Positions 3,067 through 15,443 of a stretch of DNA of 20,543 nucleotides are shown here, piece by piece. The position numbers and the translations under genes are program-made. The notes under the pieces were generated by a model, which saw only the letters and a program-made list of their open reading frames with translations, had not been told where the DNA came from and searched no databases. Origin of the DNA: a virus; the IMG/VR virus record IMGVR_UViG_3300028423_000153, positions 1-20,543 of that record; one strand, written 5' to 3'. Within the stretch, counting starts at the first letter, position 1; each line of letters starts with the position of its first letter.

Positions 3067-3992
3067 AAAGTTTAAAGTTCTCGGTTGAAGATATTCAAAA
3101 CAAAAAAGTAATGGTTGCCACGCCAATGTATGGTGGTCAGTGTGCGGGGATGTTCTGCAAAGCAACGAACGATTTATCAGCAGTCTGTGCGAAATATAAC
3201 ATTCCCCTGCAATTTTACTATCTTTTCAACGAATCACTCATCACGCGCGCGCGTAATTATTGTGTAGATGAGTTTCTTCGTTCTGATAATACACACCTAC
3301 TTTTCATTGATAGTGATATCGGATTCGATTACAAAGACGCTTTAACGCTACTTCATCTTTGTGGTGATCAAGAAGATGAGTTAGAAGTAGTAACTGGTCC
3401 TTACCCAAAGAAAACGATTGCTTGGGAGAAGGTTGCAAAAGCTGCCGAAATGGGCTACGGCGATGAAAACCCATTTTATCTAGATCAGTTCGTAGGAGAT
3501 TATGTATTTAACCCTGCTCAGAATGTTCGTTCGTTTCGCCTAGATGAACCAGTCGAAATTCGTGAAGGGGGAACTGGTTTTATGATGATTCATCGTTCTG
3601 TCTTTGAAAAGTATCGCGAGGCATACCCAGAACTTCGCTACAAACCAGATCACGCTCGAACCGAGCACTTCGATGGGTCTCGTGAAATCACTGCCTTCTT
3701 TGATACTGTTATTGATCCTGAAACGAAGAGGTATCTATCAGAAGATTATATGTTCTCGTATAACGCACGTAAAATCGGAATCAAGATTTGGATGTGCCCA
3801 TGGATGCAACTCAAGCATGTGGGATCATACATCTTTGGTGGATCTATGGCTGCGATTGCTGCAATCAAATCTTCCCCCACGGCAAGTAAAGAATCGAACA
3901 AAAAAACATACTTGACAAAAGAGGGTGAAAGTGATAGTATATCTTCTGTGAATCGCAAACAACGTAGAGCAACCAAGAAGGGTAAAAAATAA
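3063..3992 (+). CDS. Glycosyltransferase-like protein (GT2-type fold)
   Basis: A 309-residue protein starting at ATG 3063, which overlaps the preceding stop; an in-frame ATG at 3003 would lie deep inside the previous gene and is rejected. The N-terminus VMVATPMYGG and the D83-S-D85 motif in HLLFIDSDIGFD are typical of GT-A fold family 2 glycosyltransferases, where DxD binds the metal and nucleotide sugar. GGTGFMMIHRSVF (about residues 173-185) is the acceptor-side loop often seen in phage members. The C-terminus is basic and low-complexity (RKQRRATKKGKK). Substrate is unknown: modified DNA bases, host polysaccharide or a virion protein are all possible. Its position just before the sliding clamp might favour a DNA role, but that is inference. 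A promoter for gp45 lies inside its 3' end. Confidence 0.7.
   Translation: MKSLKFSVEDIQNKKVMVATPMYGGQCAGMFCKATNDLSAVCAKYNIPLQFYYLFNESLITRARNYCVDEFLRSDNTHLLFIDSDIGFDYKDALTLLHLCGDQEDELEVVTGPYPKKTIAWEKVAKAAEMGYGDENPFYLDQFVGDYVFNPAQNVRSFRLDEPVEIREGGTGFMMIHRSVFEKYREAYPELRYKPDHARTEHFDGSREITAFFDTVIDPETKRYLSEDYMFSYNARKIGIKIWMCPWMQLKHVGSYIFGGSMAAIAAIKSSPTASKESNKKTYLTKEGESDSISSVNRKQRRATKKGKK
3912..3940 (+). promoter_or_regulatory. sigma70 promoter inside the glycosyltransferase gene, for gp45
   Basis: TTGACA (3912-3917) is a perfect -35. After 17 bp comes TAGTAT (3935-3940). It lies 52 bp before the gp45 ATG, within coding sequence, and would let the clamp be expressed separately from the upstream operon. 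Confidence 0.6.
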
Positions 3993-4648: not shown

Positions 4649-4840
4649 ATGACAGAAAATCCACAGCTATCAATTCAAGATATTGCTTTCACAGCAAAAG
4701 TGATTGAGGTCGCAAGTCAGCGAGGTGCAATTCGAGCCGACGAAATGGATGAAGTAGGTACTGTCTATAAGAGGCTGGTTGCTTTTGTCCAAGCTTCTCA
4801 ACCTCAAGATGAAGAAGATCAGACTGAAGATAGCGAATAA
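4649..4840 (+). CDS. Small acidic protein of unknown function
   Basis: A 63-residue protein starting at ATG 4649, six bases after AAGAGGTG (4638-4644 region). A GTG six bases earlier lies in the ribosome site and is not chosen. It has a predicted helical body (IQDIAFTAKVIEVASQRGA) and a very acidic tail (DEEDQTEDSE). I do not recognise a family. Small genes beside gene 45 are common in T4 relatives. It ends just before the gp44 promoter. Confidence 0.6.
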   Translation: MTENPQLSIQDIAFTAKVIEVASQRGAIRADEMDEVGTVYKRLVAFVQASQPQDEEDQTEDSE

Positions 4841-4859
4841 GCTAAATGAGAGAGAGGGG

Positions 4860-4888
4860 TTGACGCTCTTCTCTTTTTCAGATATACT
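4860..4888 (+). promoter_or_regulatory. Strong sigma70 promoter for the gp44 operon
   Basis: TTGACG (4860-4865), 17 bp, TATACT (4883-4888), 38 bp before the gp44 start. The promoter overlaps a possible imperfect hairpin: GAGAGAG (4848-4856 region) with CTCTTCTC (4866-4873) followed by five T. The same bases could weakly terminate transcription from gp45. The spacer word CTTCTCTTTT also occurs in the spacer of the gp43 promoter (8571-8580). Confidence 0.75.
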
Positions 4889-4925
4889 ATGATTTTGAAT
4901 ATGAACAAAGAGGTGACGTGTATAC

Positions 4926-5873
4926 ATGACTAATGTGAATGACTTTCTGTGGGTCCAAAAATATCGTCCTAAGCGCGTTGAGGAAACGATTCTACCTTCT
5001 TCTACAAAGAAGATGTTTCAAAAATTCGTAGACGAGCGCAATATTCCAAACCTAATTCTAACTGGTCGAGCGGGCATTGGTAAAACAACCGTTGCCAAAG
5101 CAATGCTCGAAGAGATCAACGCTGACTACATTACGATCAACGGTTCGATGAACGGAAACATTGATACTCTTCGTCACGAGATCGCAAACTTTGCATCTAC
5201 CGTTTCTTTCTCAGGTGGTCGTAAGTATGTAATTCTTGACGAAGCTGACTATCTAAACGCCAATTCAACGCAACCAGCACTTCGAAACTTCATGGAGGAA
5301 TTTTCGAAAAACTGTGGGTTCATTCTTACTTGCAATTTCAAAAATCGAATTATCGAGCCTCTACACTCACGCTGCAGTGTTATCGAATTTAGCATCGGTA
5401 AAAATGATAAAGCGAAAATCGCTTCTCAATTCTTCAAAAGAGTGACATGGATTCTCGACCAAGAAAACGTCGAGTATGATCAAAAAGCTGTAGCAGAACT
5501 GATTCAAACATATTTTCCTGACTGGAGACGAGTTCTAAACGAACTTCAACGTTATTCTGCGACTGGGAAAATTGATGCTGGTGTTCTTGTTAACAAGTCT
5601 AACGACTCGATTAAAGAACTAATCGATATGATGAAAAGTAAGAGTTTCACTGGAGTTCGAAAGTGGGTGTCGGAAAACACCGACATCGATAGTGCAATTC
5701 TCTATAGAAAACTATATGACGTTCTTCCTCAATATCTTGACTCAGCCTCAAGCGTTGCTGATGCAATTATCATTCTTGCTGAGTATCAATACAAGGAGGC
5801 GTTTGTAGCTAACAGCGAAATCAATCGTGTTGCTGCTCTTGCAACAATTATGGCGGAGGCTCAGTGGAAGTGA
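4926..5873 (+). CDS. 44: Clamp loader large-copy ATPase subunit (gp44)
   Basis: A 315-residue AAA+ ATPase, close to T4 gp44 (319). It begins with the RFC-type 'WVQKYRPKRVEE' box, then Walker A GRAGIGKTT (residues 47-55), Walker B VILDEAD (102-108), a sensor-1 region 'FILTCNF' and the arginine-finger motif SRC (148-150) in LHSRC. In T4, four gp44 and one gp62 open and load the gp45 ring at primer ends. The ribosome site AAGAGGTG lies about nine bases upstream of the ATG. The stop overlaps the next start (TGATG at 5871-5875). Confidence 0.95.
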   Translation: MTNVNDFLWVQKYRPKRVEETILPSSTKKMFQKFVDERNIPNLILTGRAGIGKTTVAKAMLEEINADYITINGSMNGNIDTLRHEIANFASTVSFSGGRKYVILDEADYLNANSTQPALRNFMEEFSKNCGFILTCNFKNRIIEPLHSRCSVIEFSIGKNDKAKIASQFFKRVTWILDQENVEYDQKAVAELIQTYFPDWRRVLNELQRYSATGKIDAGVLVNKSNDSIKELIDMMKSKSFTGVRKWVSENTDIDSAILYRKLYDVLPQYLDSASSVADAIIILAEYQYKEAFVANSEINRVAALATIMAEAQWK

Positions 5874-8634: not shown

Positions 8635-9642
8635 ATGTCTTTCTATACTTCTGTTCAGAGATATGGTAACAATATTCTTTTTCGAGGATACGACAACAAA
8701 GGCAATCGTATTCACAAAAAGTTTAAGTTCTCTCCTACATTCTATCTACCTTCAAACAATCAAGAGTGCGACTGGACTGCTCTTGACGGAACTCCCGTAA
8801 AACCAATTCAACTCGATACGATGAGTGAAGCCAAAGAGTTTCTTGAAAAGTATAGTGACGTAGACAACTTTAACATCTACGGAAATACTAATTACGTAGC
8901 TCAGTTCATTCAAGAAGCTTATCCTGGCGAAATCGAGTTTAATTCCAACTTCATTCACGTCGGTAACTTCGACATTGAAGTTGCGTCTGATGAAGGATTT
9001 CCTCATCCTGAAAGTGCTTCGTATCCAGTCATCTCCATTGCTTACAAAAACAGCGTCAATAACATTTATTACGTTTGGGGGTTGGGTGACTATGACGCGA
9101 ATAAGACAGAGTTGGATCTAAAAGATCACATGATTCGTTATGTGAAGTGTCGCTCTGAAGCAGAACTTCTACAGAAGTTTGTGGTGTTCTGGGAAAACAA
9201 CACCCCAGACATCATTACAGGTTGGAATATCCGTCTGTTTGACATACCCTATCTTGTGAATCGAATCGCTAAAGTGTGCGGTGAAAAGACACAGAAGGCA
9301 TTGTCACCCTGGGGTGTCGTCAAATATCGTCAGATTAGCGTCAAAGGCAAGAGTCTGGATGCTTATGAGATTTATGGCGTAGCCCAGATGGACTACTATG
9401 ACCTATTTCAAAAGTTTGGGTATACGTATGGTAACCAAGAATCATATGCGCTAGATCATATCGCGCATGTAGTTTTGGGTGAGAAGAAGCTTTCTTATGA
9501 AGAGCACGGAAATTTATTCAACTTATTGACTAGCAAATCGAGGAAGATTGAAGTTGACAATACTAAGTCTAAAGAGAAGATGGCGGCTTTTGAGAAGTGG
9601 TGTTTGCTAAGAGATAATATAGGGAAAAAGTTGGGCAAATAA
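8635..9642 (+). CDS. 43A: DNA polymerase gp43, N-terminal part (43A): exonuclease domain with Exo I and II
   Basis: A 335-residue family B polymerase fragment. Exo I is D113-I-E115 in NFDIEVAS; Exo II is NIRLFD with D203 in ITGWNIRLFDIPYL; the conserved block YALDHIAHVVLG follows. The frame stops at 9640-9642, before Exo III (YxxxD), which lies in the downstream ORF at 10379. Together the two ORFs total 918 residues, against 898 for T4 gp43, so little or nothing is lost. The last few residues (about from 9609 on) may be non-native sequence. Split gene 43 is known in some Aeromonas T4 relatives with a mobile endonuclease gene between the parts. Whether the halves assemble as two chains or are spliced is not decided here. 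Confidence 0.88.
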   Translation: MSFYTSVQRYGNNILFRGYDNKGNRIHKKFKFSPTFYLPSNNQECDWTALDGTPVKPIQLDTMSEAKEFLEKYSDVDNFNIYGNTNYVAQFIQEAYPGEIEFNSNFIHVGNFDIEVASDEGFPHPESASYPVISIAYKNSVNNIYYVWGLGDYDANKTELDLKDHMIRYVKCRSEAELLQKFVVFWENNTPDIITGWNIRLFDIPYLVNRIAKVCGEKTQKALSPWGVVKYRQISVKGKSLDAYEIYGVAQMDYYDLFQKFGYTYGNQESYALDHIAHVVLGEKKLSYEEHGNLFNLLTSKSRKIEVDNTKSKEKMAAFEKWCLLRDNIGKKLGK

Positions 9643-9664
9643 TACCCTCCCAAGTCCCAGATAT

Positions 9665-9672
9665 TATAAATA
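9665..9672 (+). promoter_or_regulatory. T4-type late promoter for the HNH gene
   Basis: TATAAATA exactly matches the T4 late promoter -10 sequence read by gp55. It lies 40 bp before the HNH ATG. The other HNH gene (minus strand, 14356) has an equivalent element, which supports it. In T4, intron-borne homing nucleases are also late-transcribed. Confidence 0.65.
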
Positions 9673-9711
9673 ACATTATAATATTTGAGACGATATCAGG
9701 AGGAGATTTAG

Positions 9712-10428
9712 ATGTATCTGGACAACAAATATACCAAGATATATTATCAATTGGTCGAAAGGGGTTTAAGTAGAGAATCGGGTGCTGATAGTATTTACTA
9801 TGAAAAGCATCACATAATACCAAGGTCTTTGGGTGGATCAGACGACGATGATAACTTGATGTATTTGCTTCCCAGAGAACATTATGTCGCTCATCATCTT
9901 CTCACAAAAATGGTAGAAGGGACGGAAAAATCTAAAATGACTTTCGCACTACATACCTTTTTTCATTTCAACAAATATAGAAGACTCAACTTCACCGCAA
10001 GACAATACGAGTATCACAAAAAAGAGTTCGCTAAGGCGTGTAAATATAGAGTTCCGAAAACGAAATCCGATGTTTATAGTTTTAAGCATAGAGAGACATT
10101 AGAAGAATTTGTAGGAACCATATACGAATTTCATAAACATAGCGGTCTATCTCAGCAGGAAGTCAATTTTCTGCGAGTTGCTGCCGAAGATGAAGCGTCT
10201 ACGACTAGATGGATAAAAAATTGGGGGGTTTGGGTTGATGAGTTGCAAGATTGGTCTTATAATAAGAGAAAGAAACCTAGTAGACAAACTCCTGTGATAT
10301 GCGAGCACTGTAATAAAAGTGTGTCGCCTGGAAATTATTCGAGGTGGCACGGAGATAATTGTAAGGAAGTAGATATCGATGGACACTATGCGAGAACTAG
10401 ACAGGTTGCTAGAATCAGCAAGCGTTGA
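9712..10428 (+). CDS. HNH homing endonuclease inserted in gene 43
   Basis: A 238-residue protein with good ribosome site AGGAGG seven bases before the ATG. The nuclease motif is H33-H34 in KHHIIPRSLGGSDDDDNL with N48, then the last His at EHYVAHH (57-62). A C-terminal C2HC knuckle (C197, C200, H213, C217) in ICEHCNKS...RWHGDNC is typical of DNA-binding tails of phage HNH enzymes. The frame runs 50 bases into the start of the second polymerase ORF, so the last dozen residues may be non-native. It resembles the HNH at 14356: both share 'HHI.P...GGSD...NL.YL...EH..AH....KM'. Its role would be to cut gene 43 of related phages lacking the insert. Confidence 0.85.
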   Translation: MYLDNKYTKIYYQLVERGLSRESGADSIYYEKHHIIPRSLGGSDDDDNLMYLLPREHYVAHHLLTKMVEGTEKSKMTFALHTFFHFNKYRRLNFTARQYEYHKKEFAKACKYRVPKTKSDVYSFKHRETLEEFVGTIYEFHKHSGLSQQEVNFLRVAAEDEASTTRWIKNWGVWVDELQDWSYNKRKKPSRQTPVICEHCNKSVSPGNYSRWHGDNCKEVDIDGHYARTRQVARISKR

Positions 10429-12130
10429 TGAATTACTCGAAATGGATTTAGATCGTTTCACCCGTGACGAGTTGGAATATTTATTTGATAGAGTCCAAAC
10501 CAAGGCAGATGATGTGTGCTACAGTCTTGGAATCGACTATAACATTCGAGATGTCCAGCTTGTAGATGAAATCGATAAGCAGACCGGTCTACTTGATCTA
10601 GGTCTAACGATTGCATATAAAGGTGGTGTCAACTATCCAGATGTTTTCGGAACAACTGGTATTTGGGATAGCATTACATATCGTTATTTGAGCGACCGCA
10701 AGATTGCAGTGCCACAGCCAGAACACAAAGAAAAAGGAGATTATCCAGGTGGCTACGTGAAAGAGCCGATCACGGGTATGAACGAGTGGGTTGTGTCTTT
10801 CGATCTTAATTCACTGTATCCGAACTTGATCGTGCAGTATAACATGTCACCTGAAACACTTCTCAAAAGTCCTGCTGATATGCTTCCGAGTGGTGTTGAC
10901 TTCTATCTTGAAAATGGTCTTCATCCTTCGGTGCACGAAAGAAACGTATCTGTGGCAGCGAATGGGTCTTGTTATCGTAAAGACGTGAAGGGATTTATCC
11001 CCGAGATTATTGTAAATCTATACGATGAAAGAAAGACCGTCAAAAAGCAAATGCTCGAAAAGAAGCAGGAATATGAAAAAAACAAATCTCCAAATCTAAA
11101 TAGAGATATTACACAACTAGACAACCGCCAAATGGCAGTAAAAATCCTTTTGAATTCACTTTATGGTGCACTTGGGAATAAATATTTCCGTTATTTTGAT
11201 CTACGAGTAGCAGAGGCAATCACACTATCTGGTCAGCTTTCGATTCGCTGGGCTGAAAAGGCGATGAATGATTCGTTGAATAGTATTCTCGGTACAGATG
11301 GTGAGGATTACGTGATTGCAATTGATACGGACTCTCTCTATGTCAATATGAAACCACTTGTGGATAAAGTTCAACCAAAAGATCCTGTATCGTTTCTCGA
11401 CAAAGCGTGTGAGCAAAAGTTCGAACCTATTCTCGAAAAGGCTTATCAAAAGCTATTCGAAAAAATGAATGCGTATGAAAATCGAATGGTCATGGCAAGA
11501 GAGGCAATTGCAGATCGTGGAGTGTGGACGGGTAAAAAACGTTACATTCTCAACGTTCATAATAACGAAGGTGTTCAGTATACAGAACCGAAACTCAAGG
11601 TCATGGGACTTGAAGCAGTTAAGTCTTCAACCCCTCAGATCATTCGAGACAAGTTCGAAGAAGCATATCGAATCATTCTAACTGGCGAAGAAAAAGACCT
11701 TCATAAGTTCGTCGCAGACTTTGAGAAGCAGTTCAAATCTCTTTCACCAGAAGAAGTATCGTTTCCTCGAGGTGTGTCTGAGATCGATAAGTGGAAAGCT
11801 GGGTCTGACATTTACAAGAAAGGGACGCCAATTCACGTTAGGGGCGCTTTGCTTTTCAATTGTAAAGCTAAAGAGCTAGGTTTAGATCGAAGCGTTGAGT
11901 TGATCAAGAATGGCTCTAAAATCAAGTTCTGCTATCTAAAAACGCCAAATCCGCTTCGTGAAAACGTTGTGTCTTTTCCACAGTATCTTCCACGTGAAAT
12001 GGGGCTAAACGATTACATCGATTACGATAAACAGTTTGACAAAGCGTTCAAGGAACCACTTCGTCTTGTCACGGACGCGATTGGTTGGAACCTAGAACAC
12101 ATTAATACAATTGAAGATTTCTTTGTATGA
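10379..12130 (+). CDS. 43B: DNA polymerase gp43, C-terminal part (43B): Exo III, palm, fingers and thumb
   Basis: A 583-residue fragment. Exo III is Y54-N-I-R-D58. Polymerase motif A is FDLNSLYP (D142), motif B is K255-x3-N259-SLYG, and motif C is D316-T-D318-S. The C-terminus ends 'NTIEDFFV', plausibly the clamp-binding peptide (T4 ends LDFLFG). The start at ATG 10379 has AAGGAAG (10363-10369) nine bases upstream, so it can be translated alone; ATG 10388 is an alternative. The first 45 residues are charged and helical. Upstream of 10373 the frame is closed by TAG at 10370. Domain content means this chain has polymerase activity residues but lacks two of the three exonuclease motifs. Confidence 0.92.
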   Translation: MDTMRELDRLLESASVDELLEMDLDRFTRDELEYLFDRVQTKADDVCYSLGIDYNIRDVQLVDEIDKQTGLLDLGLTIAYKGGVNYPDVFGTTGIWDSITYRYLSDRKIAVPQPEHKEKGDYPGGYVKEPITGMNEWVVSFDLNSLYPNLIVQYNMSPETLLKSPADMLPSGVDFYLENGLHPSVHERNVSVAANGSCYRKDVKGFIPEIIVNLYDERKTVKKQMLEKKQEYEKNKSPNLNRDITQLDNRQMAVKILLNSLYGALGNKYFRYFDLRVAEAITLSGQLSIRWAEKAMNDSLNSILGTDGEDYVIAIDTDSLYVNMKPLVDKVQPKDPVSFLDKACEQKFEPILEKAYQKLFEKMNAYENRMVMAREAIADRGVWTGKKRYILNVHNNEGVQYTEPKLKVMGLEAVKSSTPQIIRDKFEEAYRIILTGEEKDLHKFVADFEKQFKSLSPEEVSFPRGVSEIDKWKAGSDIYKKGTPIHVRGALLFNCKAKELGLDRSVELIKNGSKIKFCYLKTPNPLRENVVSFPQYLPREMGLNDYIDYDKQFDKAFKEPLRLVTDAIGWNLEHINTIEDFFV

Positions 12131-12386: not shown

Positions 12387-13439
12387 ATGTCTCTAATTGA
12401 TAAGCTACAAAAATCAGGTGCTGTTAAACACACATCTGTTCTTTCCGAATCTACTTACTTTAATGTTAAAGAAAGTGTTCCCACTGACATTCCTATTATC
12501 AACTTAGCATTATCAGGTCAACTTAATGGGGGGCTTACTTCAGGATTGACCTTTTTAGCGGGGGAATCCAAAAGTTTCAAGTCTCTCCTGGGTTTGATGA
12601 TGGTTAAGGCATACTTGAAAAAACACGAAGATGCAGTATGTCTGTTCTATGATAGCGAGTTTGGAACTACGCCTGGATATATTGAGACTAACGGTATCGA
12701 TCCTAATAGAGTGCTACATATTCCAATTGAGCATCTAGAACAGTTGAAATTTGACATTTCAAAAAGACTTGATGCTATCGAAAGAGGAGATAAGGTTATC
12801 ATCTTTGTTGATTCTGTAGGTAATCTTGCATCTAAAAAAGAGGTGGATGACGCTCTCGACGGAAAATCCGTTGCGGATATGTCAAGAGCAAAAGTAATGA
12901 AATCTCTTTGGAGAATCGTTACACCAAATCTAACAACTAAAGACATTCCGTGTGTTGCCATCAATCACACATACCAGACTATGGAGCTTTATAGCAAAGC
13001 GGTGATGTCTGGTGGTACAGGTGGAATGTATTCAGCAAATCAGGTATTCATCATCTCAAAGGCCCAAGAAAAGGATGGTAAAGAGTTGAATGGATATAAG
13101 TTTACAATTAACATTGAAAAGTCTCGTTATGTGCGAGAAAAATCTAAGTTTCCGTTTACAGTTCTTTTTGAAGATGGTATAAACAAGTGGTCTGGATTGC
13201 TCGATATTGCTATTGAAGGTGGATTTGTTGTAAAGCCTTCTATGGGGTGGTATTCTAAAGTCGACCCAGAGACAGGTGAGATTGAAGATAAAAAGTATAG
13301 AGCAAAAGACACAAACAACTATAATTTCTGGGAAAGTATTCTTACTAGTAAAGAGTTCCAGGAATATGTTAAAGACCGATATCAAGTTGGTAGAAATGAG
13401 CTTATGAAAGATGAAGAAGAGGTAGATACACAAGAATGA
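12387..13439 (+). CDS. uvsX: UvsX RecA-like recombinase
   Basis: A 350-residue protein. Its Walker A, GESKSFKS (59-66), matches T4 GPSKSFKS, and AVCLFYDSEFGTTPGYI, SKKEVDDALDGK.VADM and CVAINHTYQT (T4 CIAINHTYET) are near-identical blocks. VIIFVDSVGNLASKKE carries Walker B. It forms filaments on ssDNA and drives strand invasion for recombination-dependent replication. It is shorter than T4 UvsX (391) because the acidic C-terminal tail is reduced (ends DEEEVDTQE). ATGA overlap at 13436 couples it to the gp41 fragment. Confidence 0.95.
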   Translation: MSLIDKLQKSGAVKHTSVLSESTYFNVKESVPTDIPIINLALSGQLNGGLTSGLTFLAGESKSFKSLLGLMMVKAYLKKHEDAVCLFYDSEFGTTPGYIETNGIDPNRVLHIPIEHLEQLKFDISKRLDAIERGDKVIIFVDSVGNLASKKEVDDALDGKSVADMSRAKVMKSLWRIVTPNLTTKDIPCVAINHTYQTMELYSKAVMSGGTGGMYSANQVFIISKAQEKDGKELNGYKFTINIEKSRYVREKSKFPFTVLFEDGINKWSGLLDIAIEGGFVVKPSMGWYSKVDPETGEIEDKKYRAKDTNNYNFWESILTSKEFQEYVKDRYQVGRNELMKDEEEVDTQE

Positions 13440-14125
13440 TCGAAAACACAATTCTTTCAGCACTTATTTACAACGAAGACTACACAAGAAAGGTTATCCC
13501 TTTTCTCAAAGAGGAGTATTTTCATGATCTAGCTGAAAAGAAGTTGTTTAATACCGTAACTGATTATGTCGAGAAATACAACGGGCTTCCTACTAAGGAA
13601 GCCCTACATCTTTCTTTGAGTGAGGATAGTAAACTAAACGAGTCAACTTATGAACAAGTCACAAAACTGATTGATTCTCTCGAATACGATGAGAAAACCG
13701 ACGTAAACTGGTTGTCCGAGAAGACTGAAAAGTTTTGTCAAGACCGTGCTATCTATAATGCTGTTCGAAAGTCAATCACGATCCTCGATGGAGACGAAAA
13801 GCAGCTAGACAAGGGCTCAATTCCCGAACTTCTATCAGATGCTCTAGGTGTGTCTTTTGACACTAATATTGGTCATGATTTTCTTGAAGGGTTTGCAGAA
13901 CGCTTCGAGTTCTATCATACTAAAGAGCATAAAGTGCCTTTTGATCTAGAGTTGTTCAACAAAATCACTAAAGGTGGAATATCTATTAGACCTCTTTTGG
14001 GTTTCGATACCTCTTTTACTCCATTCTATTCTGTCTTCTTTTGTAGCACCATGAAATCCGATGTTATTTTCGTGACACCATTTACCTATTTTTCTACGAT
14101 ATTCTACATTAAGATTGGCGCCTAA
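13436..14125 (+). CDS. 41A: Replicative helicase gp41, N-terminal part (41A), interrupted before Walker A
   Basis: Helicase homology covers about residues 1-181 (to about 13978): 'ENTILSALIYNEDYTRKV..FLKEEYF' (T4 VEIILSHLIFDQAYFSKVWPYMDSEYF), 'GHDFLEGFAERFEFYHTKEHKVPF' and NKITKGG (T4 GHDWMDDYEARW..., VPFKLRILNKITKGG). The frame then runs antisense through the HNH gene to a stop at 14125, giving 48 residues without helicase character. In T4 the next segment carries AGVNVGKS, the ATP-binding P-loop; it is not in this frame nor anywhere nearby. As written this piece would be an N-terminal domain only. Start ATG overlaps the uvsX stop. Confidence 0.82.
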   Translation: MIENTILSALIYNEDYTRKVIPFLKEEYFHDLAEKKLFNTVTDYVEKYNGLPTKEALHLSLSEDSKLNESTYEQVTKLIDSLEYDEKTDVNWLSEKTEKFCQDRAIYNAVRKSITILDGDEKQLDKGSIPELLSDALGVSFDTNIGHDFLEGFAERFEFYHTKEHKVPFDLELFNKITKGGISIRPLLGFDTSFTPFYSVFFCSTMKSDVIFVTPFTYFSTIFYIKIGA

Positions 14126-14356
14126 CATATTCATTGCTCTCAAGTCATTAATGTTTTTATGCATTTTCCATAACATAAAGTGCGCTAAAATATGCTCTTT
14201 AACAGTTAAATACGTTAGATTCGATTCATGATCACTACCACCTGCATGTTTTGGTGTTATATGGTGTTTATGTAATTCCGATCCTGGTTTGTAGGATTCT
14301 TTCAATGCTTTTCCGCGTTGACAAAGGTTGTGATAAGTGTTATGATAAATAGACAT
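13946..14356 (-). CDS. HNH endonuclease within gene 41, opposite strand, probably truncated
   Basis: A 136-residue protein read leftward, with AAGGAGA eight bases before its ATG. HNH motif: H31-H32 in HKHHITPKHAGGSDHESNL with N46, then EHILAHF (H55, H59). 'IGKWCHENNIGFHGATKEDRIEWSKRG' is a continuation common in intron-type phage HNH enzymes, which normally run on for some tens of residues. Here the last 15 or so codons (RYSTFSDFVEQL) are the antisense of the helicase KITKGG region, so the native C-terminus seems lost at a junction near 13980-13990. It has its own late promoter at 14418-14425. The catalytic motif is intact, so activity is possible. Confidence 0.8.
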   Translation of the reverse strand: MSIYHNTYHNLCQRGKALKESYKPGSELHKHHITPKHAGGSDHESNLTYLTVKEHILAHFMLWKMHKNINDLRAMNMLGANLNVEYRRKIGKWCHENNIGFHGATKEDRIEWSKRGIETQKRSNRYSTFSDFVEQL

Positions 14357-14417
14357 GCTGGAAATCTCCTTCTACGTTTCTAGTGTGTGTGGGGACTGCC
14401 ATCCCGCGACACACGTC

Positions 14418-14425
14418 TATTTATA
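14418..14425 (-). promoter_or_regulatory. T4-type late promoter for the minus-strand HNH gene
   Basis: TATAAATA on the minus strand, 62 bases before the HNH ATG. Exact match to the T4 late consensus and parallel to the element before the other HNH gene at 9665. Confidence 0.6.
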
Positions 14426-14510
14426 CAAAAGTATTCCCATCCAAACCAAATATAATTTGAAAAGTGAAGTAGAAGCACTATCCCATTACAGTAAAAGCAG
14501 GAGTTATTAT

Positions 14511-15443
14511 ATGAAAATCAGCAATGAGTGGACTGAAGCTAACGTTAGTATTTCAGAAGTTCAAAAACTGCTAGATCAGGGATATGAGGTTGAAGTTGAT
14601 AGCCCAGATGGCTATGTTCCTGTAAACTATTTTGTTGATAAAGGTCAATACGATGAATATGTCTTTGAGGGTGATGATGGTGTTAATATTAGATGCAATC
14701 ATAGACATTTGAATCTGCTTGACGTAACTCTTGACGATCTGGAACTTTTGACGAGAGAAGCTTATACGAGCCGCATTGGACGTGTAAAGTCTCGAACAAC
14801 CGGTAAGTTAGTGATCAAGGAGTATCCAACTACTACTGCCGGCGCTGCTCACTTTAGACATCTACTCAACGAACTTCGCTTGAAAAAGAACTTCACGCCA
14901 GATATCGTCTATATTGATTATCTAAATATTTGCACTAGTTCTCGTCTTCGCTATGGTGCAAACGTAAATTCATACACTCTTGTCAAATCAATTGCAGAAG
15001 AGCTGCGTGGTCTAGCTGTTGAGTTTAATGTTCCAATCGTGAGTGCAACCCAGACAAATCGAACTGGTTATACAAGTTCTGATGTTGGTCTGGAAGATAC
15101 ATCAGAATCATTTGGTCTTCCTGCTACTGCTGACTTCATGTTTGCGATGATATCTACAGAGGAGTTGGAAGAACTCGGTCAAGTGATGGTTAAACAGCTA
15201 AAAAATAGATGGGGTGATATTAGTAACCCGAAAAGATTTGTGGTTGGTATTGATCGATCTAAGATGAGGTTGTTTGATGCGGAAGATTCTGCACAAGAGG
15301 GTCTAATGAAAGATGGCAACACTTCGCCTAAGCAAGCAAAAAGTGACTCCGTGATGGATAACAGTGATTTCGGCGAAAGGCTTGAAGACGAGATTCGAGG
15401 AGCTCATCGTAGAAAAAAACCCAAGTTTGAAGGGTTAAACTAA
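14511..15443 (+). CDS. 41B: Replicative helicase gp41, C-terminal part (41B), with intein-like N-terminal segment
   Basis: A 310-residue protein from ATG 14511, with AGGAG (14499-14503) seven bases upstream. Residues 1-67 are not helicase: 'ISEVQKLLDQGYEVEVDSPD', GYVPVNYFVDKG and DGVNIRCNHRHL look like the first half of a Hint/intein domain, including a block-B-like 'DG..IRC..H'. From residue 68 (LLDVTLDDLELL) the protein follows T4 gp41: VIKEYPTTTAGAAHFRHLLNELRLKKNF, Walker B region IVYIDYL, 'SIAEELRGLAV', TQTNRTGY, SFGLPATADF and QLKNRWGD. The roughly 50 residues between KITKGG of 41A and this point, with Walker A, are absent. A longer frame to 14355 is rejected since it crosses the HNH start with no ribosome site. 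Confidence 0.85.
   Translation: MKISNEWTEANVSISEVQKLLDQGYEVEVDSPDGYVPVNYFVDKGQYDEYVFEGDDGVNIRCNHRHLNLLDVTLDDLELLTREAYTSRIGRVKSRTTGKLVIKEYPTTTAGAAHFRHLLNELRLKKNFTPDIVYIDYLNICTSSRLRYGANVNSYTLVKSIAEELRGLAVEFNVPIVSATQTNRTGYTSSDVGLEDTSESFGLPATADFMFAMISTEELEELGQVMVKQLKNRWGDISNPKRFVVGIDRSKMRLFDAEDSAQEGLMKDGNTSPKQAKSDSVMDNSDFGERLEDEIRGAHRRKKPKFEGLN

What the first reader, a model, noticed from the sequence alone, without database searches (positions are those of the whole stretch)
13960..14720. Helicase gp41 lacks its Walker A segment at the insertion site
The first part ends at NKITKGG and the second begins at LLDVTLDDL. In T4 about 50 residues, including AGVNVGKS, lie between. I find no P-loop on either strand of this region. 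The two helicase parts sum to about 424 residues against 475 in T4, consistent with that loss. The replicative helicase should be essential, so this implies a hidden third piece, another copy, a non-functional gene or an assembly fault.
Basis: partly seen in the sequence, partly recalled or inferred. Interest (0 to 1): 0.75.

Follow-up and report, generated by a model that had tools for sequence, protein, structure and literature searches.

The report
Broken phage helicase with intein remnant
A virus gene for the essential DNA-unwinding enzyme has, as assembled, lost its ATP-binding segment exactly where related viruses carry a self-removing protein insert and its DNA-cutting helper gene, so this copy is most likely a broken leftover of that mobile element (or an assembly error) rather than a working enzyme.

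Summary
In this 20.5-kb IMG/VR fragment of a T4-like phage, gp41 stops matching at ...FNKITKGG (13978) and resumes at NLLDVTLDDL (14712). The 53 residues between them in intact relatives, including AGTGVGK[S/T], are absent, and no gp41 P-loop exists in the window. There is a minus-strand HNH homing endonuclease truncated at its C-terminus (13970-14356). There is also a 67-residue piece of an intein, with its own Shine-Dalgarno and ATG, fused in frame to the helicase C-part (14511-14711). Relatives (L084-L099) carry the complete cassette at ALAG|TGVGKS: 17-aa Int-N, HNH gene, ~125-130-aa Int-C ending in HN. By profile search it belongs with the atypically split VidaL intein (PDB 6VGV, E=7e-36). 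In the window both flanks of the cassette are gone: ~375 bp on the left and ~318 bp on the right. Neither splicing nor ATP hydrolysis is possible from this DNA. A trans-spliced hidden piece is excluded on chemistry, and a second gp41 is rare in known phages. The most likely origin is imprecise short-homology repair or deletion at the homing site. An assembly or amplification chimera is nearly as likely. Only reads can decide.

The parts
13436..13978 (+). gp41 N-terminal extein (DnaB-like N domain to ...FNKITKGG)
   Evidence: phrog_19 E=1.1e-37 over residues 1-182; Pfam DnaB N domain just below cut-off; 53% identity to L098 gp41-N
13970..13978 (.). left junction: 9 bases AAAGGTGGA that fit both helicase (KGG) and HNH (S-T-F on the - strand); possible short homology
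   Evidence: tblastn of helicase and of HNH each extend through it; only the F codon is well supported on the HNH side
13946..14356 (-). HNH homing endonuclease ORF, 136 aa; residues 1-129 (to 13970) homologous to the 210-250 aa HNH of relatives, C-terminal half missing
   Evidence: Pfam HNH E=8e-5; phrog_655 homing endonuclease E=1e-16; L098/L099 match residues 3-129
14499..14503 (+). Shine-Dalgarno AGGAG, 7 nt before ATG 14511
   Evidence: sequence
14511..14711 (+). first 67 residues of Int-C of a VidaL-type split intein (through block B, ...RCNHRHL); blocks F and G absent
   Evidence: 57-63% identity to Int-C of gp41 in L084-L097; alignment A1; PA5oct UvsX Int-C 35%
14711..14712 (.). right junction: intein fragment fused in frame to helicase; ~318 bp (106 residues in L098) missing
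   Evidence: alignment A1; L098 positions 4682 and 5001
14712..15443 (+). gp41 C-terminal extein from NLLDVTLDDL to stop; motifs downstream of Walker A retained
   Evidence: phrog_19 E=3.5e-51, Pfam DnaB_C E=1e-7; 59-72% identity to relatives

Best explanation
The locus is the wreck of a known arrangement. A VidaL-type, atypically split intein with a free-standing minus-strand HNH homing endonuclease gene had entered gp41 inside its P-loop (ALAG|TGVGKS). A later imprecise event removed both ends of the cassette together with the adjoining helicase codons: 12 residues upstream and 41 downstream of the insertion point. What remains is gp41-N without Int-N, a C-terminally truncated HNH gene, and the front half of Int-C fused in frame to gp41-C. 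The proposed mechanism is a break at or near the homing site (HNH cleavage, or any break), resection, and joining by very short homologies, as T4 UvsX does at nuclease breaks. This could have been two deletions, or one event in which an internal cassette fragment was captured in a broken, resected gp41. Shown here: the anatomy, the family, the missing parts. Inferred: the break, the joining route, and that the junctions exist in virus genomes. The product is a null helicase, so this genome is defective unless complemented.
For: Complete versions of the same cassette sit at exactly this point in about 20 related gp41 loci. The intein profile matches VidaL 6VGV at 7e-36. The HNH lies on the minus strand between the halves in both L098/L099 and the window. 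The HNH part of the cassette is already being lost in nature: cassette lengths run from about 1.2 kb down to about 0.46 kb across contigs, with the exteins intact. Left-junction overlap is up to 9 nt. A second contig, L017, has lost 41 gp41 residues spanning the same insertion point, while 155 uvsX and 112 gp43 loci show no such deletion. T4 repairs nuclease breaks by UvsX-dependent joining at 3-13 nt homologies with deletions (PMC8262927). Imprecise intein loss is expected to be lethal (PMC2988022).
Against: A helicase-null phage should not be abundant enough to assemble. Two lesions on either side of one kept segment is more than a single simple deletion explains. No second contig carries either junction in IMG/VR. 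All retained parts remain open and show third-position-biased divergence like functional genes, so the lesion must be recent. Right-junction homology is at most a few bases and not resolvable.
Confidence: 0.5

Rival explanations
1. The same cassette-bearing locus is intact in the virus, and the two junctions are artefacts of amplification, library chimeras or assembly in a mixed population of cassette variants.
For: An essential gene is broken in an otherwise healthy replication operon. Neither junction is found in any other IMG/VR contig. The cassette is polymorphic in length and presence among relatives, the kind of place where short-read assembly is fragile. L017 shows that another metagenomic contig has a similar lesion at the same spot.
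Against: Assemblers need shared words at the join; only about 9 nt (left) and no clear homology (right) are seen, and two joins are needed. Real deletions within this cassette are common in related contigs.
Confidence: 0.38
2. The lesion is real and tolerated because the genome carries a second, intact replicative helicase elsewhere, so this locus is a pseudogene.
For: Only 20.5 kb of the genome is held, so a second copy cannot be excluded.
Against: gp41 is single-copy almost everywhere: 2353 places in 2349 phage records. The retained pieces are not decayed.
Confidence: 0.08
3. gp41 works from three or more pieces: a separate small gene supplies the Walker A segment, by trans-splicing or by non-covalent assembly.
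For: Split gp43 and NrdA in T4-like phages work from separate polypeptides (PMC2988022). Both gp41 parts here have open frames, and the C-part has a ribosome-binding site.
Against: Trans-splicing is chemically impossible from these pieces: no Int-N on the N-part and no blocks F/G or terminal HN before gp41-C. No P-loop piece in the window.
Confidence: 0.02

Closest known systems
VidaL-type atypically split inteins (PDB 6VGV/6VGW)
   Same: The gp41 cassette of the relatives has a 16-17-aa Cys-starting Int-N, a ~125-130-aa Int-C and terminal HN, and matches VidaL over nearly its whole length. The window keeps the first 67 residues of such an Int-C.
   Different: The window lacks Int-N and the second half of Int-C, so it is a non-splicing remnant.
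Fractured genes with split intein plus free-standing homing endonuclease (Dassa et al. 2009, known from citations; paper not held)
   Same: Host gene in two ORFs, intein halves on each, endonuclease gene between.
   Different: Here the endonuclease is on the opposite strand and truncated, and the host-gene codons at the insertion point are lost.
T4-like gp41 with intein in L084-L099
   Same: Same gene, same insertion point, same order and orientation of parts.
   Different: Relatives keep Int-N, Int-C and both halves of the P-loop.
UvsX with P-loop intein in Pseudomonas phage PA5oct and Salicola phage SCTP-2
   Same: Homologous intein (35% and 30% in the shared 67 aa), inserted just before SGKS of a P-loop ATPase.
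   Different: Different host gene; contiguous intein in SCTP-2; intact.

Membership tests
VidaL-type atypically split intein | Int-C N-terminal half through block B | tested here: met
   57-63% identity to Int-C of gp41 relatives; direct match of the 67 aa to VidaL weak, E=0.0024
VidaL-type atypically split intein | short Int-N (15-37 aa) with nucleophile at position 1, on the N-extein | tested here: not met
   no CVHPE-like segment after KGG or elsewhere
VidaL-type atypically split intein | blocks F and G with terminal HN followed by Ser/Thr/Cys | tested here: not met
   block B is followed directly by NLLDV
VidaL-type atypically split intein | protein trans-splicing activity | not testable with these tools
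   sequence only; predicted impossible
T4 gp41 / DnaB-like replicative helicase | DnaB-like N domain | tested here: met
   phrog_19 162-350
T4 gp41 / DnaB-like replicative helicase | Walker A P-loop | tested here: not met
   absent in six frames
T4 gp41 / DnaB-like replicative helicase | C-terminal core downstream of Walker A | tested here: met
   phrog_19 403-589, Pfam DnaB_C
HNH homing endonuclease (PHROG 655) | HNH core | tested here: met
   Pfam HNH above cut-off
HNH homing endonuclease (PHROG 655) | full-length C-terminal (target-binding) half | tested here: not met
   homology ends at residue 129 of 136; relatives are 210-250 aa

The most novel reading that the evidence does not exclude
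A lineage of T4-like phages stably keeps a Walker-A-less, two-piece gp41 bearing an intein fragment, working with a helicase ATPase supplied by another gene or by the host.
Probability: 0.03. Interest if true: 0.8.

Novelty: new member of a known kind. Interest (0 to 1): 0.3.

Why it matters
If the junctions are real, this is a natural record of how an intein placed inside an essential P-loop is lost badly. That outcome is predicted to be lethal and is rarely seen. Together with L017 and the graded loss of the HNH gene in relatives, it gives a concrete set of loci for studying homing cassettes under decay. If they are artefacts, it warns that split-intein sites are weak points of metagenomic assembly and that 'missing P-loop' calls need read support.

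Tried and rejected
Group I intron in the interval: no Rfam match, even with lax thresholds. P-loop hidden on either strand: none. Sibling contigs with an intact or identical locus: none found by junction sequences (with showing that the five hits carry no gp41), by a back-translated C-terminal tail pattern, or by HNH and intein queries. GTDB genomes gave only 60-69% relatives. Direct repeats around the lesion: nothing beyond short chance matches. A second gp41 scan was biased towards P-loop-bearing loci by its query, so it is not used to count losses. Dassa 2009 is not held and is cited only through other papers. Three-piece trans-splicing was rejected on chemistry.

Full report
What was checked. 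The window is a 20,543-base IMG/VR record, and nothing else of its genome is held. It carries a T4-like replication block: sliding clamp/clamp loader, split gp43, uvsX, gp41 (the clamp and clamp-loader names are read from the ORF sequences). gp41 begins at 13436 and matches the DnaB-like helicase profile phrog_19 at positions 162-350. The match resumes at 14712 with positions 403-589. N-part 181 residues plus C-part 243 residues makes 424, against 472 in the intact relative L006. The segment absent from the window corresponds to LSRKSLSVALAG-TGVGKTLFMTHCASANLMAGQNVLYITMEMAEERIAERIDA in the relative L005: 12 residues before and 41 after the point where inteins insert. Six-frame search found no gp41 P-loop in the window.

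What lies in the gap. On the minus strand is an HNH endonuclease ORF (13946-14356; Pfam HNH, phrog_655). It matches full-length relatives only over residues 3-129. On the plus strand, after AGGAG and ATG at 14511, are 67 residues that are not helicase. Searching with them found 14 viral contigs. In every one they are the start of an Int-C fused to gp41, e.g. M..ISEIQTLLNQGYEVEVDSPDGW..VRVNENHLF...NHENHRYYTNGVSSHN|TGVGKSLFMCH. In those of the contigs read upstream, the N-part of gp41 ends ...GGLP.KTLNIALAG|CVHPETRVRIRFRKKQ* or a close variant. The closest match in architecture, L098/L099, has exactly the window's order, with a full minus-strand HNH gene of more than 200 aa between the halves. 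PA5oct UvsX and Salicola phage SCTP-2 UvsX carry homologous inteins just before SGKS. A profile of the joined halves (four gp41 cassettes plus the contiguous SCTP-2 intein) matches the solved VidaL intein at E=7e-36, then other inteins including gp41-1. VidaL is described as an atypically split intein with a 16-aa Int-N (PMC13014065).

The lesion. Against L098, the window lacks about 375 bp on the left (positions 3627 to about 4000 of the reversed L098: the end of the N-extein, Int-N and the HNH C-terminus). It lacks 318 bp on the right (4683 to 5000: the rest of Int-C, the P-loop and 41 residues of gp41). The right join is in frame. At the left join both homologies run through AAAGGTGGA (13970-13978), compatible with a short-homology join. 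The HNH side of that statement rests mainly on one aligned F codon. At the right join no overlap is visible.

How unusual. Of 113 gp41 loci with enough upstream sequence, 112 keep G.GK[S/T]. The exception, L017, is a contiguous gp41 that lost 41 residues, FYHR|HCAASN, across the same insertion point and in frame. Over 192 gp41, 155 uvsX and 112 gp43 loci, no other internal deletion of 18 residues or more was found; the later half of the gp41 set was fetched with a query that includes the P-loop, so the rate is a lower bound. The intein cassette itself varies from about 1.2 kb (with HNH) to about 0.46 kb (without), always with both exteins intact (the lengths are 3 nt short because of the pattern used). 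So deletions inside the cassette are frequent in nature, while deletions that run into the helicase are rare.

Mechanism. The pieces cannot be rescued by splicing: gp41-N has no Int-N, and the C-part has no blocks F/G and no HN before the helicase. Without Walker A the helicase cannot bind ATP (established knowledge of P-loop ATPases). The most likely origin, if the junctions are genomic, is a break at the homing site followed by resection and joining at very short homologies. T4 does this with UvsX at 3-13 nt after Cas cleavage, giving 17-bp to 18-kbp deletions in nonessential regions (PMC8262927). In that work essential-gene targets gave only substitutions, which fits the expectation that such a lesion here is lethal. 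A review of T4 mobile elements states that only precise loss of an intron or intein restores the gene (PMC2988022). That makes a population of such phages paradoxical and keeps the artefact reading almost level.

Weighing. Real lesion 0.5, artefact 0.38, pseudogene beside a second helicase 0.08, functional three-piece helicase 0.02. The identification of the parts (VidaL-type split-intein/HNH remnant in gp41) is much firmer than its origin, about 0.95.

Noticed in passing
8635-12130: gp43 DNA polymerase is split in two ORFs with an HNH homing endonuclease gene (9712-10428, phrog_655) between. phrog_262 is covered 7-309 and 307-851, so nothing conserved is lost, but each part carries 30-50 extra residues with no significant match in the phage collection (best E=0.6). 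No group I intron found. Resembles the split gp43 of Aeromonas phages 25/44RR.
   Followed up: partly
L017:4800-5010: Another gp41 without Walker A: in-frame 41-residue deletion spanning the intein insertion point, no cassette present.
   Followed up: partly
L084-L099, L108, L132-L135: The gp41 split-intein cassette occurs in a size series (about 1.2, 0.81, 0.59, 0.46 kb) reflecting stepwise loss of the HNH gene while the intein halves stay intact.
   Followed up: partly
L084, L085, L088, L089, L091, L066: uvsX of several relatives has an intein at a second site (VGGG|TGSYYSAD), some with an HNH gene, so neighbouring genes carry different inteins.
   Followed up: no
501-2027: 508-aa protein with a C-terminal HNH domain and an N-terminal part matching phrog_1583 (unknown function).
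   Followed up: no
14375-14420: GC-rich imperfect inverted repeat (gtgtgtgggga...tcccgcgacacac) between the HNH start and the Int-C start; possible control element.
   Followed up: no
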